Positions 28,804 through 63,267 of a stretch of 64,000 nucleotides of DNA are shown piece after piece. The translations under genes and the position numbers were made by a program. The stretch covers positions 29,388 to 93,387 of the forward strand of contig JANLFM010000004.1 of the NCBI GenBank assembly GCA_024655865.1. Direction: 5' to 3'. Within the stretch, counting starts at the first letter, position 1. Each line of letters opens with the position of its first letter. Under the pieces are notes generated by a model. It had not been told where the DNA came from. It did no database searches and was given only the letters and a program-made list of their open reading frames with translations. The stretch comes from Caldisericota bacterium. GTDB taxonomy: Bacteria > Caldisericota > JANLFM01.

Positions 28804-29187
28804 ATGATGAGAGCAAGGGCTTTCCAGAATATTTTTGCTCTTTTTATCCTGGCTGGAGCTCTGGTTTTTGGCTTCCTGCCAAGAAGCGATTTGTTTCCTA
28901 TCAAGGTGGACATTTACATTCAGGGTGACACTTTCACCTTCCGAGAGATCGAGAGCGATTTCGAGGAGGGGGTCCGTGCCCTGGACATCGTTGTGGACAA
29001 CAGCTTTTCGGCCTCGGCCTTTTACGGGGATCTGCTCCTCACGCCAGGCCAACACTACCTCGTCTTTCATTACAAGTACCGGGGGGAACTTCTGGATAGC
29101 CGTGATTTGAACTTAGAGCCTTCCGGACATAGCGCCATCAGGGTTGACCTCAACCGCACGAGCATTCTCAACGTGGAGGCGAAATAG
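28804..29187 (+). CDS. Small secreted or membrane-anchored protein of unknown function
   Basis: A 127-residue protein with one N-terminal hydrophobic segment (residues 8-24) and then a beta-rich soluble part. I recognise no domain. TAATAT (28794-28799) lies just before the tandem ATG codons at 28804 and 28807, and no good ribosome site is present at normal distance, so a leaderless mRNA is possible. The rhomboid protease gene starts one base after its stop, with GGAGG inside its last codons, so the two are probably one operon. The protein could be a substrate or partner of that protease, but this is only context. Confidence 0.55.
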   Translation: MMRARAFQNIFALFILAGALVFGFLPRSDLFPIKVDIYIQGDTFTFREIESDFEEGVRALDIVVDNSFSASAFYGDLLLTPGQHYLVFHYKYRGELLDSRDLNLEPSGHSAIRVDLNRTSILNVEAK

Positions 29188-29188
29188 C

Positions 29189-29857
29189 ATGGTGCTTCCC
29201 ATCTATGATTTAAACAGAAGAAGGTCCTTTCCCTTTATCACTCTGACGCTGATTGCCTCTTGCATAATAGTTTTTATCTACCAGCTCACCCTGGGGCTCT
29301 CTTCTGAGGAGGGCAACCGTTTTGTGACGCTCTACGGGGCGGTCCCCGCATTGATCCTTCAGGGACAGAACATCTCCTCCATCTTCAGCTCCATGTTCCT
29401 GCACGGTGGCTGGCTCCATCTGATCGGAAATATGTTTTTCCTCTGGGTTTTTGGCGACAACGTGGAAGATTTCCTGGGACCTGTGCGCTACACCCTTTTC
29501 TACTTGCTCTCTGGAGTTGCTGCAGCCTACAGCTACGTTCTCTTCTCAGGGAACTACCCCTATACACCCATGATTGGAGCCTCTGGGGCGATATCCGGGG
29601 TCATGGGAGCTTACATTTATTTCTTCCCCAGAGCACCGATAATCACGCTGATTCCCCTGGGAATTTTCTCAAGGGTGATCCCCCTTCCTGCCTGGATCTA
29701 CCTCTTAATCTGGTTCGGCTCGCAGTTCCTGATCGCTCCTTCGGAAGGCGTTGCGGTTCAGGCCCACATTGGAGGTTTCCTGGCCGGAATTGCTCTGGCG
29801 ATCATCTTTAGCTTAGGTAAACGCCCCACCCCATCCGGGGGTCAGGTCTTGCAATAA
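29189..29857 (+). CDS. Rhomboid family intramembrane serine protease
   Basis: A 222-residue membrane protease with about six transmembrane segments that cleaves substrates inside the bilayer. The catalytic Ser is in GASGAISGVMGAY and the catalytic His in AHIGGFLAG; the HGGWLHLIGNMFFLWVFGDN motif is also classic. ATG 29189 follows GGAGG by 10 bases; the frame open from 29144 is not used. The last six codons and the stop codon come from the inserted repeat element at 29838-30114, so the natural C terminus has been replaced or trimmed. Confidence 0.9.
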   Translation: MVLPIYDLNRRRSFPFITLTLIASCIIVFIYQLTLGLSSEEGNRFVTLYGAVPALILQGQNISSIFSSMFLHGGWLHLIGNMFFLWVFGDNVEDFLGPVRYTLFYLLSGVAAAYSYVLFSGNYPYTPMIGASGAISGVMGAYIYFFPRAPIITLIPLGIFSRVIPLPAWIYLLIWFGSQFLIAPSEGVAVQAHIGGFLAGIALAIIFSLGKRPTPSGGQVLQ

Positions 29858-30114
29858 CACATTTGCTTTTTTCGGCATTCTATGCGCTCTGGGGAGATGC
29901 CTTCGGGTGCTTTTAATACTGCCGTAGCGGCCCTCTTTCACCTCTTTTTCAATGGAAATTTCCATAAACCTCTATGGCCTGCCCTTTGAGCCTGAAATAG
30001 AAGGCAGAAGCTCATGAGCCATTAAACCAATATTTGAAACATAGCCCCTTTTTAGCCTGAAAACGAAGCAGAAGCCCGTCGAAATTAAAATGTTGGATTG
30101 CAAGACCTGACCCC
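29838..30114. mobile_element. 277-bp non-autonomous element, copy 1
   Basis: The ends are perfect 18-bp inverted repeats, GGGGTCAGGTCTTGCAAT and ATTGCAAGACCTGACCCC. No gene lies inside. A second copy of identical length and orientation is at 34494-34770; the right halves are nearly identical and the left-centre is more diverged. The end sequence is the same repeat that borders the Y1 transposase locus at 45974-47536, the likely source of mobility. The left end reads into the rhomboid gene. Confidence 0.8.
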
Positions 30115-33299: not shown

Positions 33300-33326
33300 G
33301 GGGTCAGGTCTTGCAATCCAACAATT
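33300..33326. repeat. Single repeat copy inside the transporter operon
   Basis: GGGGTCAGGTCTTGCAATCC plus CAACAATT, one half-site of the dispersed repeat, lies between the second permease and the ATPase gene. It is flanked by two 20-bp near-copies of the permease 3' end (33279-33298 and 33335-33354, three differences). Confidence 0.85.
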
Positions 33327-34493: not shown

Positions 34494-34770
34494 GGGGTCA
34501 GGTCTTGCAATCACACATTTGCTTTTTTCGGCATTCTATGCGTCCTGGGAATGTACCTTCAAATACCTTTAATACTGTCATAGCGGGCCTCTTCTTTTTA
34601 TCAATTGAAAATTTCAATGAGATTCTCCACAGCCAGCCCTTTGTAGACCGAAATAGAAGGCAGAAACTCATGAGCCATTAAACTAATATTTGAAACATAG
34701 CCCCCTTTTAGCCTGAAAACGAAGCAGAAGCCGGTCGAAATTAAATTGTTGGATTGCAAGACCTGACCCC
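34494..34770. mobile_element. 277-bp non-autonomous element, copy 2
   Basis: Same length, same orientation and same 18-bp inverted ends as copy 1 at 29838-30114. It starts 21 bases after the stop of the transporter ATPase gene. Shared internal blocks include GGCAGAA, CTCATGAGCCATTAAAC and AATATTTGAAACATAGCCCC. The stretch from its end to proS (34771-34840) holds only a weak promoter candidate (TTTACC 34780-34785, 17 bp, TAAATT 34803-34808). Confidence 0.8.
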
Positions 34771-40305: not shown

Positions 40306-40332
40306 GGGGTCAGGTCTTGCAATCCAACAATT
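40306..40332. repeat. Single repeat copy between degV-like and deacetylase genes
   Basis: A full copy of the dispersed repeat (GGGGTCAGGTCTTGCAATCC then AACAATT). It lies between the divergent DegV and deacetylase genes and within the upstream open frame of the latter, so it may have displaced that gene's original start region. Confidence 0.85.
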
Positions 40333-45929: not shown

Positions 45930-46019
45930 AATTTTAAATATTATACCATAAATCCCACCCCCTCTGAGCTCTGAGGGTCAGGTCTTGCAATCCAACAATG
46001 AAGAGGATAAACTTTAACC

Positions 46020-46862
46020 ATGGCCAGACCACTGAGAATCGAATATCCCGGAGCTGTATACCACGTCACCTCTCGGGGTAACGCCCGCCAGGATATATTC
46101 CTGGACTCAAAGGATCGAGAACTTTTCCTCAAAACGCTCGCCGAGGTTGTCGATGAGTTTAACTGGCTCTGTCACGCCTATTGCCTCATGGATAACCACT
46201 ACCATCTCCTTCTGGAAACTCCGGACGCCAATCTCTCCCGGGGCATGCGCCAGTTGAACGGGGTTTACACTCAAATATTCAACCGCAGGCATAATACTTT
46301 TGGCCATCTCTTTCAGGGCCGCTACAAGGCAATCCTGGTAGAAAAGGAACGCTACCTCCTGGCGCTCTGTCGGTACATTGTCCTCAACCCCGTGCGCTCC
46401 GGAAAAGCGAAAGAGGTTCAAGATTGGGCCTGGAGCAGCTATCAAGCCACGGCCGGCCTCGCTCCGCCCCCTCCATTCCTTGTTACCGATTGGATTTTGG
46501 GGCAATTTGCACCCGAGAAGAATAAGGCCCAGGCACTCTATCGCCAGTTTGTAAATTCCTGGCCGGGCACCTCTCCCTGGGATGATCTCCGCGGACAGAT
46601 TTATTTGGGGAGCGAGAGGTTCATTAAGGATCTTGCCAATGGGAATGCCCTTGCCAAAGGAAATGCCCTTACTGAGGTTCCCCGCTTCCAGAGGAACGTG
46701 AACCGGCTCGGGCTCGAGGAAATTTTTGCAGGACGACCCCAGGAGGAGGCGATTGCCCTGGCTTATCGGGAACATGGCTACACGATGAAGGAGATCGCCG
46801 CATACTTGGGAGTTCATTACGCTACTGTCAGCAGGCGCTTACGGCGCTCCCGCCCCCTGTAG
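46020..46862 (+). CDS. REP-associated tyrosine transposase (IS200-like Y1, RAYT)
   Basis: A 280-residue single-strand DNA transposase. The N terminus MARPLRIEYPGAVYHVTSRG is the signature of RAYT proteins. MDNHYHLLLET has the HUH metal motif (His-Tyr-His here), and the catalytic Tyr is in CRYIVLNPVRSG. The C-terminal ~60 residues form a helix-turn-helix (MKEIAAYLGVHYATVSRRLR). An internal repeat NGNALAKGNAL is visible near residue 205. It is flanked by inverted copies of the dispersed repeat, as expected for a RAYT and its REP targets. The gene looks intact. Confidence 0.9.
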   Translation: MARPLRIEYPGAVYHVTSRGNARQDIFLDSKDRELFLKTLAEVVDEFNWLCHAYCLMDNHYHLLLETPDANLSRGMRQLNGVYTQIFNRRHNTFGHLFQGRYKAILVEKERYLLALCRYIVLNPVRSGKAKEVQDWAWSSYQATAGLAPPPPFLVTDWILGQFAPEKNKAQALYRQFVNSWPGTSPWDDLRGQIYLGSERFIKDLANGNALAKGNALTEVPRFQRNVNRLGLEEIFAGRPQEEAIALAYREHGYTMKEIAAYLGVHYATVSRRLRRSRPL

Positions 46863-46988
46863 GATATTGGATTTTCGATACAGTTCTTATCCTGACTGCC
46901 TTTAAAGAGGAGGGACCGAAGGGAACACGACTTTGTAAGCGGTATGGGCGCCTCTGTCAGGAGCGACTTTGTAAACGAAATGGCTCGA

Positions 46989-47098
46989 CTTTGTCGGTGG
47001 CGTGACTCGCTTTTGTAAGCAGCACGGGCACCCTTTTTCGGTGTAATGACCCCCCTTTGTCGGTGGCGTGACTCGCTTTTGTAAGTGGCACGGGCGCC
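46989..47098 (+). repeat. 44-bp direct repeat downstream of the transposase
   Basis: Two copies starting CTTTGTCGGTGGCGTGACTC at 46989 and 47055 (66 bp apart) match over about 44 bp with only a few changes near the end. Shorter related pieces such as GACTTTGTAA and CTCTGTCAG occur nearby, giving a degenerate repeat field between 46925 and 47165. Confidence 0.7.
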
Positions 47099-47334
47099 TC
47101 TGTCAGGGAAAACGCTCGGCCTTCTCGTCTCTGTCAGTGGCATGACCCCCTTATCAGCGGCCTGACCGGCGAAGAGAGGCTTATGGAGAGCCAATCCTAG
47201 CCTTCTCTTCCTATCCCACAGTTTCCTCAGGCGGCTGATTTTGGGCCGGTTCTGGTTATATCCACCTGGCCTGTTCGGCTCCTTGCAGAAAGGGGCCCTT
47301 GGCAAAAGACCCTGAGGTGCGAGGCTGAAATTTG

Positions 47335-47429
47335 ATCCGCAGAGGATCCCCGCTTCCGCAGAAGCTCCTTGCATCCGCGAAGAGCCCTTGCATCCGCAGA
47401 AGCTCCCTGCACTCGCAGAGGATCCCCCG
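47335..47429 (+). repeat. Five tandem 19-bp units
   Basis: Five contiguous units of exactly 19 bp with consensus ATCCGCAGAAGCTCCTTGC occupy 47335-47429. Units 2 and 4 are closest to the consensus. There are no spacers, so this is a minisatellite and not a CRISPR array. Confidence 0.75.
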
Positions 47430-47464
47430 CGGTGCACCATCTAAAGGGAAATCCAAAAATGTAT

Positions 47465-47483
47465 GATTGCAAGACCTGACCCT
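47465..47483. repeat. Extra inverted end copy next to the transposase locus right border
   Basis: GATTGCAAGACCTGACCCT, an inverted copy of the dispersed repeat end, lies 45 bp inside the right border of the transposase locus. It may be the trace of an earlier or nested insertion. Confidence 0.7.
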
Positions 47484-47547
47484 ACTGGCTGGCCCTATTG
47501 GAATTCTGGAATTGTTGGATTGCAAGACCTGACCCCGTTACATGGCG

Positions 47548-63203: not shown

Positions 63204-63267
63204 GGGGTCAGGTCTTGCAATCCAACAACTTAATTCCCATAGGGTCAGGTCTTGCAATCCAACAATT
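63204..63267. repeat. Two direct repeat copies between the exporter ATPase and PLDc_N genes
   Basis: GGGGTCAGGTCTTGCAATCC plus AACAA at 63204-63228 and a second copy at 63242-63267, head to tail with 37-bp period. They are flanked by AGATTCATCCCC at 63185-63196 and 63283-63294. Confidence 0.85.

What the first reader, a model, noticed from the sequence alone, without database searches (positions are those of the whole stretch)
45974..47536. A Y1 transposase locus and its dispersed repeat family
Seen: the RAYT gene is bordered by inverted copies of a 26-27 bp repeat starting GGGGTCAGGTCTTGCAATCC. The same repeat occurs at 29838, 30114 (inverted), 33300, 34494, 34770 (inverted), 40306, 47465 (inverted) and 63204/63242. 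Known: RAYTs act on REP repeats. Inference: this one gene generated all of them. The repeat lacks the obvious hairpin of classical REPs, so the recognition mode may be new.
Basis: partly seen in the sequence, partly recalled or inferred. Interest (0 to 1): 0.72.

Follow-up and report, generated by a model that had tools for sequence, protein, structure and literature searches.

The report
Transposase whose two-part end repeats spread
A bacterial DNA-cutting transposase of the known TIRYT kind sits among about 44 copies of its own 26-letter end repeat; comparing 262 relatives shows that the repeat has a fixed outer half and a variable inner half whose spelling tracks the enzyme's small DNA-reading helix, so the enzyme probably picks its repeats by reading sequence rather than by the hairpin shape its cousins use.

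Summary
In detail: 11 copies in the window (0 in 100 shuffles), about 44 in the genome, around an intact Y1 (HUH) transposase gene at 46020-46862. It is a TIRYT/TIRtron (Di Nocera 2013; subclass 2.1 of Quentin 2018), a known kind, not a hairpin-REP RAYT. The repeat has no hairpin. The same-genus genome G001 lacks both the transposase and every copy.

New evidence from 262 relatives: (1) the 26-nt end is a fixed head GGGGTCARGTCT plus a variable tail; both tails of one element match. (2) The tail covaries with the C-terminal HTH recognition helix far more than with the catalytic domain (partial r 0.33 vs 0.10; Pagel LRT 45 and 39 vs at most 18 for other columns). Two of three helix-to-tail rules held in unseen loci (12/13, 9/9); the third did not. 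(3) Dispersed copies carry the resident gene's tail. (4) 14% of ends show host-junction tandem duplications with a breakpoint peak right after invariant GGGTCA, a possible cleavage footprint. (5) The left end holds the gene's -35 box; the right end often encodes its stop.

In the window the gene's own right end is lost or displaced ~600 bp. Binding, cleavage and mobility are inferred, not shown.

The parts
45974..45999 (+). Left end (LE) of the TIRtron, AGGGTCAGGTCTTGCAATCCAACAAT: head pos 1-12, tail 13-26
45985..45990 (+). Putative -35 box TTGCAA inside the LE tail
   Evidence: position-specific conservation in 125 aligned upstream regions
46008..46013 (+). Putative -10 box TAAACT, 17 bp from the -35 and 6 bp before ATG (leaderless start inferred)
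46020..46862 (+). TIRYT transposase gene, 280 aa; HUH motif H60-Y61-H62, catalytic Y119
46056..46379 (+). Y1_Tnp catalytic domain (residues 13-120)
   Evidence: Pfam PF01797; Foldseek best hit 4er8 E. coli RAYT
46740..46850 (+). C-terminal HTH (residues 241-277), recognition helix residues 267-277 = 46818-46850
   Evidence: Pfam HTH_23/Sigma70_r4_2; AlphaFold helices; covariation with tail
46863..47457 (.). About 600 bp of non-coding DNA with 22-bp and 19-bp tandem repeats between the stop codon and the nearest RE-type copy; unique in the genome. Relatives have the RE 4-25 bp after the stop
47458..47483 (-). RE-type copy, AGGGTCAGGTCTTGCAATCATACATT: displaced right end or independent copy
47511..47536 (-). 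LE-type solo copy in tandem with the previous one
29838..30114 (-). 277-bp non-autonomous element (RE type at 29838, LE type at 30114); its RE supplies the stop codon of the ORF 29144-29857
34494..34770 (-). 277-bp non-autonomous element, 85% identical to the one at 29838; absent from the syntenic place of G001
33300..33325 (+). Solo LE-type copy, 1 bp after a stop codon; absent from G001
40306..40331 (+). Solo LE-type copy; absent from G001
63204..63229 (+). Solo LE-type copy, tandem pair with the next
63241..63266 (+). Solo LE-type copy

Best explanation
The locus is a TIRtron: a Y1 (HUH) transposase gene with its own terminal inverted repeats, plus a family of non-autonomous derivatives (ten head-out pairs of 256-503 bp and solo ends) that the protein, or a lost sister copy, moved in trans. 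Shown by sequence: the end has two parts, a near-invariant outer head GGGGTCARGTCT and an inner tail of about 14 nt that is the same at both ends of one element but differs between elements, and the tail goes with the C-terminal HTH. Inferred: the HTH recognition helix reads the tail (binding specificity), while the catalytic Y1 domain works on the invariant head and cuts after GGGTCA (a CA dinucleotide). In classical RAYTs and IS200/IS605 elements a DNA hairpin anchors the enzyme and a neighbouring tetranucleotide guides the cut; here a linear tail read by an added HTH takes the place of the hairpin. The LE tail also holds the gene's -35 box and the RE head often encodes the last codons and stop (AAG ACC TGA = K-T-stop), so the repeats are also promoter and terminator codon; occupation of LE by the HTH would repress the gene (inferred).
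For: Architecture: LE outer end 44-56 bp before ATG, RE 4-25 bp after the stop, median element 925 bp. Tail agreement of the two ends of one element 61-99% at positions 13-25 against 27-80% when partners are shuffled, 123 elements. Tail against protein: partial Mantel HTH 0.33, Y1 0.10, other below 0.05 in 148 non-redundant loci; head against protein the other way (Y1 0.13, HTH 0.02; weak, little variation). Pagel tests on a tree built without the HTH: R272+[RA]273 with TTG[CT]A[AT] LRT 44-45, T268+K272 with TTGA[AT][AT] LRT 39-40; the best of 60 catalytic/linker columns, each given its most favourable residue, reaches 18.4. Rules made on 68 loci held in 80 not seen before: 12 of 13 and 9 of 9. 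Recognition helix 267-277 in the model. Dispersed copies in 11 other genomes: 51 of 92 match the resident tail at 11/14 or better against 13.8 (largest 43 of 2000) when residents are swapped. Cleavage footprint: 37 of 264 ends have a tandem duplication across the host-end junction, against 0.2-0.8% at control positions; the duplicated part of the end is most often 7 nt, GGGGTCA. A Marinomonas TnpA_REP is known to cut at CT and CA (PMC8266576). Promoter.
Against: All covariation, no biochemistry. The third rule (S268..V273 with TTGACA) failed: 2 of 7 in held-out loci, Pagel p=0.1. Some Y1 columns (L116, A22, E108) also go with the tail, so the catalytic domain may share in reading it. The nearest-neighbour gain of the HTH over Y1 is modest (0.57 vs 0.48 tail identity at under 60% protein identity). 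Part of the tail is also under selection as a -35 box. Traits for the Pagel tests were chosen after looking at half of the data. Nine duplications break at 3-4 nt or at 13-16 nt, not at 7.
Confidence: 0.78

Rival explanations
1. The Y1 domain alone recognises the ends, as in classical RAYTs, and the HTH is an accessory domain (for example for targeting the replication fork, as Quentin et al. 2018 suggest for the DnaA-like version); the tail and the HTH merely drift together by descent.
For: Quentin et al. note that the TIR motif does not resemble DnaA boxes and that the C-terminal domains may not take part in target recognition (PMC6006769). Y1 distance also correlates with the tail (Mantel 0.24).
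Against: The association survives a tree built from the Y1 and linker region, and no Y1 or linker column comes near the helix; partial correlation 0.33 vs 0.10; rules hold in unseen phyla samples.
Confidence: 0.15
2. The ends are recognised by pairing: the two inverted ends on one strand anneal into a long stem, and their tails are alike only to keep that stem.
For: LE and RE of one element are complementary over about 18 nt on one strand; pairs are always head-out (10 of 10).
Against: LE/RE differences are not biased towards G-T wobble on either strand (42 vs 43); solo copies exist in numbers; LE and RE differ consistently at positions 19-21; pairing would not predict covariation with the helix.
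Confidence: 0.1
3. The repeat family is a host feature (regulatory or terminator site) unrelated to mobility.
For: Copies lie between genes, often right behind stop codons.
Against: Absent from all five syntenic places in the same-genus genome and from its whole genome; copies elsewhere track the resident transposase; paired copies share an interior.
Confidence: 0.03

Closest known systems
TIRYT / TIRtron (Di Nocera et al. 2013, PMC3733652)
   Same: Y1 transposase gene between long inverted repeats unrelated to hairpin REPs, motif GGGGWSAS (here GGGGTCAG), moderately abundant repeat family with single and paired copies.
   Different: Two-part structure of the repeat, LE/RE asymmetry, tail-helix correspondence, promoter in LE, stop codon in RE and junction duplications are not in the passages read.
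TnpA_Y1 subclass 2.1 (Quentin et al. 2018, PMC6006769)
   Same: Class 2 RAYT-like core (Y---NP: Y119-N123-P124), length about 280 aa, C-terminal HTH_23-type domain, no REP nearby.
   Different: Quentin et al. doubted a role of the HTH in end recognition; the data here favour one.
RAYT / TnpA_REP with REPs (E. coli, Stenotrophomonas, Marinomonas)
   Same: HUH/Y1 fold (best structural match 4er8), gene between inverted repeats, dispersed copies, inferred cut at CA or CT.
   Different: No hairpin, no GTAG tag, extra C-terminal HTH, about 280 instead of 165 aa.
IS200/IS605 insertion sequences
   Same: HUH/Y1 catalytic core.
   Different: Subterminal hairpins and no inverted ends in IS200/IS605; here inverted linear ends and an HTH.

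Membership tests
TIRYT / TIRtron | Y1 transposase homologous to TnpA_REP with HUH and catalytic Tyr | tested here: met
   Pfam PF01797; H60-Y61-H62, Y119 invariant in the alignment; fold match 4er8
TIRYT / TIRtron | Gene between terminal inverted repeats unrelated to hairpin REPs, motif GGGGWSAS | tested here: met
   Head GGGGTCAG in this family; 161 relatives with both ends. In the window LE is in place; the RE-type copy lies ~600 bp downstream
TIRYT / TIRtron | TIRs form a dispersed family, single or dimeric | tested here: met
   44 copies, 10 head-out pairs
Quentin subclass 2.1 | C-terminal HTH_23/HTH_28/Bac_DnaA_C domain | tested here: met
   HTH_23 28.1 bits, cut-off 24.6; helices 241-277
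Quentin subclass 2.1 | Placement in the 2.1 clade of the published tree | not tested
   The published profiles were not available
RAYT with REPs | Flanking GTAG/GTGG-tagged hairpin REPs | tested here: not met
   No hairpin (0.0 kcal/mol), no GTAG tag
IS200/IS605 | Subterminal hairpins at both ends, no terminal inverted repeats | tested here: not met
Active mobile element | Observed movement or cleavage | not testable with these tools
   Only presence/absence against G001

The most novel reading that the evidence does not exclude
A whole branch of HUH transposases has replaced hairpin recognition by a modular code: an appended sigma-region-4-like HTH reads a linear 'address' tail (helix words such as HYATVSRR read TTGCAAT, HYTTVSK reads TTGAAAT), the Y1 core cuts the invariant head after GGGTCA, and abortive cuts leave junction duplications as a genomic footprint. 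The same tail is the gene's -35 box, so binding would also be autoregulation.
Probability: 0.65. Interest if true: 0.72.

Novelty: new member of a known kind. Interest (0 to 1): 0.6.

Why it matters
TIRYTs were named in 2013 and set aside as REP-less; how they find their ends was open, and the one later survey doubted that the HTH takes part. The comparison makes this directly testable: it names the residues (268, 272, 273 in the recognition helix), the bases they should read (tail positions 14-18) and the phosphate likely to be cut (after position 7). If true, HUH single-strand transposases can be re-addressed by swapping a small helix, and repeat families in genomes can be assigned to their transposase from sequence alone.

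Tried and rejected
Hairpin recognition: no stable fold of either end. One-strand pairing of the two ends: no wobble bias. Exact insertion boundaries from empty sites in G001: insertions are clearly absent there, but intergenic DNA is too diverged (about 75% identity) to give the boundary to the base. A right end at the normal place behind the window gene: only weak look-alikes (for example CCTGAC at 46895-46900), not counted. A Bac_DnaA_C domain reading DnaA boxes: a related 294-aa clade has DnaA boxes mirrored at its ends, but the one such protein checked has HTH_23, so no link was claimed. The 600-bp spacer as a repeated element: unique in the genome. Third helix rule (TTGACA): not confirmed in held-out loci. 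Close homologues of known structure by sequence: none. Literature: no paper holds the motif; only two hold 'TIRYT'.

Full report
Observation. The genome (1.82 Mb) holds 33 exact copies of a 17-mer core against 0 of the reversed control, 44 with a relaxed pattern. The gene at 46020-46862 encodes an intact 280-aa Y1_Tnp protein with a C-terminal HTH. Its AlphaFold model (pLDDT 87) matches E. coli TnpA_REP bound to a REP best (4er8). The ends have no hairpin.

What kind of thing. Di Nocera et al. (PMC3733652) described TIRYTs: Y1 transposases between long inverted repeats with the motif GGGGWSAS, whose repeats can form families. Quentin et al. (PMC6006769) place most of them in subclass 2.1, with a C-terminal HTH. 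The window locus meets these features. It is not a hairpin-REP RAYT. The second Y1 gene of the genome is flanked by a perfect palindrome of other sequence and cannot be the source.

Family in the genome. Copies form ten head-out inverted pairs of 256-503 bp and no tail-out pairs; the rest are solo or tandem. The 277-bp elements at 29838 and 34494 share their interior at 85%. The syntenic stretch of the same-genus genome G001 lacks the copies at 29838, 33300, 34494, 40306 and the whole 45974-47536 block, G001 has none anywhere and no close TIRYT. Of 61 genomes searched, 7 have the 14-nt head; outside this one at most three copies each, and the tails read mostly differ.

Relatives. 80 homologues from many phyla, 51 from the own phylum's relatives and about 130 from Nitrospirota, a deltaproteobacterial phylum and a proteobacterial class gave 262 loci, 202 with a recognisable left end. 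Ends lie at fixed places: LE 44-56 bp before the ATG, RE 4-25 bp after the stop; the element is about 925 bp. The window gene keeps its LE, but the next RE-type copy is ~600 bp away, behind unique, tandem-repeat-rich DNA.

Two-part end. In 123 elements with both ends, positions 2-7 (GGGTCA) are practically invariant, positions 8-12 nearly so, and positions 13-25 vary between elements but agree between the two ends of one element. The end of conservation is at 26 nt.

Tail and helix. In the first 73 loci the tail correlated most with the HTH. In 148 non-redundant loci the partial Mantel correlation is 0.33 for the HTH, 0.10 for Y1, below 0.05 for the rest; for the head it is reversed, though weakly. 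Correlated-evolution tests on a tree without the HTH give LRT 44 and 40 for two helix-tail rules and 8 (not significant) for a third. As a calibration, 60 catalytic and linker columns, each with its most favourable residue, reach at most 18.4. The two strong rules were made on one half of the loci and hold in the other (12/13, 9/9); the third fails (2/7). The window's own helix word, HYATVSRR, goes with TTGCAAT in all ten loci that have it, the tail of nearly all copies in its genome.

Dispersed copies follow the resident gene. In 11 other genomes 51 of 92 copies outside TIRtrons match a resident tail at 11/14 or better; swapping residents gives 13.8 on average, 43 at most.

Promoter and stop codon in the ends. 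Aligned on the ATG, upstream regions show a -10 (T-12, A-11, T-7, with TG at -15/-14 in one class) and a -35 (TTGxxx at -35) that is the tail of LE, 17 bp apart, ending at the ATG. The two distance classes of LE (44-48 and 51-56 bp) match the place of TTG in the tail. Many proteins end in K-T encoded by the RE head, AAG ACC TGA. Promoter use, leaderless start and autorepression are inferred.

Junction duplications. At 37 of 264 ends a host flank of 5-14 nt plus the first nucleotides of the end stand twice in tandem; shuffled flanks give none, control positions 0.2-0.8%. The break inside the end is most often after 7 nt, GGGGTCA, sometimes after 3 or 8. This points to a strand break after GGGTCA and a second break 12-20 nt outward. 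Known TnpA_REP proteins cut at CT, one also at CA (PMC8266576). That the duplications are made by the transposase is inference; how they arise is not explained.

Verdict. An ordinary member of a known, little-studied kind, but the comparison answers, at the level of strong statistical evidence, how this kind may find its ends. Limits: mostly metagenome-assembled genomes, no biochemistry, traits chosen on half of the data, possible share of Y1 columns in tail reading.

Noticed in passing
L157, L185, L187, L189, L193, L195-L199, L203, L204 (about 64 bp before the start codon): A related 294-aa Y1 clade in genomes of the same phylum has a perfect DnaA box TGTGGATAA at a fixed distance before the gene (12 loci), mirrored behind the gene in 9 of them; this might couple the element to replication initiation.
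   Followed up: partly
L152:1171-1892 (G000:C60:64070-64791): Second Y1 gene of the genome, between two copies of the perfect palindrome AAAAATAGGGACaGTCCCTATTTTT: a hairpin-type RAYT locus, unrelated to the repeat studied.
   Followed up: partly
29144-29857: The ORF before the 277-bp element takes its stop codon from the inserted right end (CAA TAA), so the insertion seems to have replaced the natural C-terminus.
   Followed up: no
46990-47089 and 47335-47426: Degenerate tandem repeats of 22 and 19 bp between the transposase stop and the RE-type copy, found nowhere else in the genome.
   Followed up: partly
L145:16, L146 near its end, L148:1834 (contigs C9, C14): Three copies with the altered head TGTTCAGG share the flank AGAGCGGGA and lie near contig ends, perhaps parts of a longer repeated element that broke the assembly.
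   Followed up: no
L155, L156 (G002, G004): The closest TIRYT homologues in the own family (about 50% identical) show no clear inverted end pair; they may be domesticated or decayed.
   Followed up: no
L096 LE, L115 RE, L082 RE: Long tandem arrays of short head units at TIRtron edges (9-bp GGGGTCACA at least seven times in L096; 23-bp units in L115; GGGGTCAT units in L082).
   Followed up: partly
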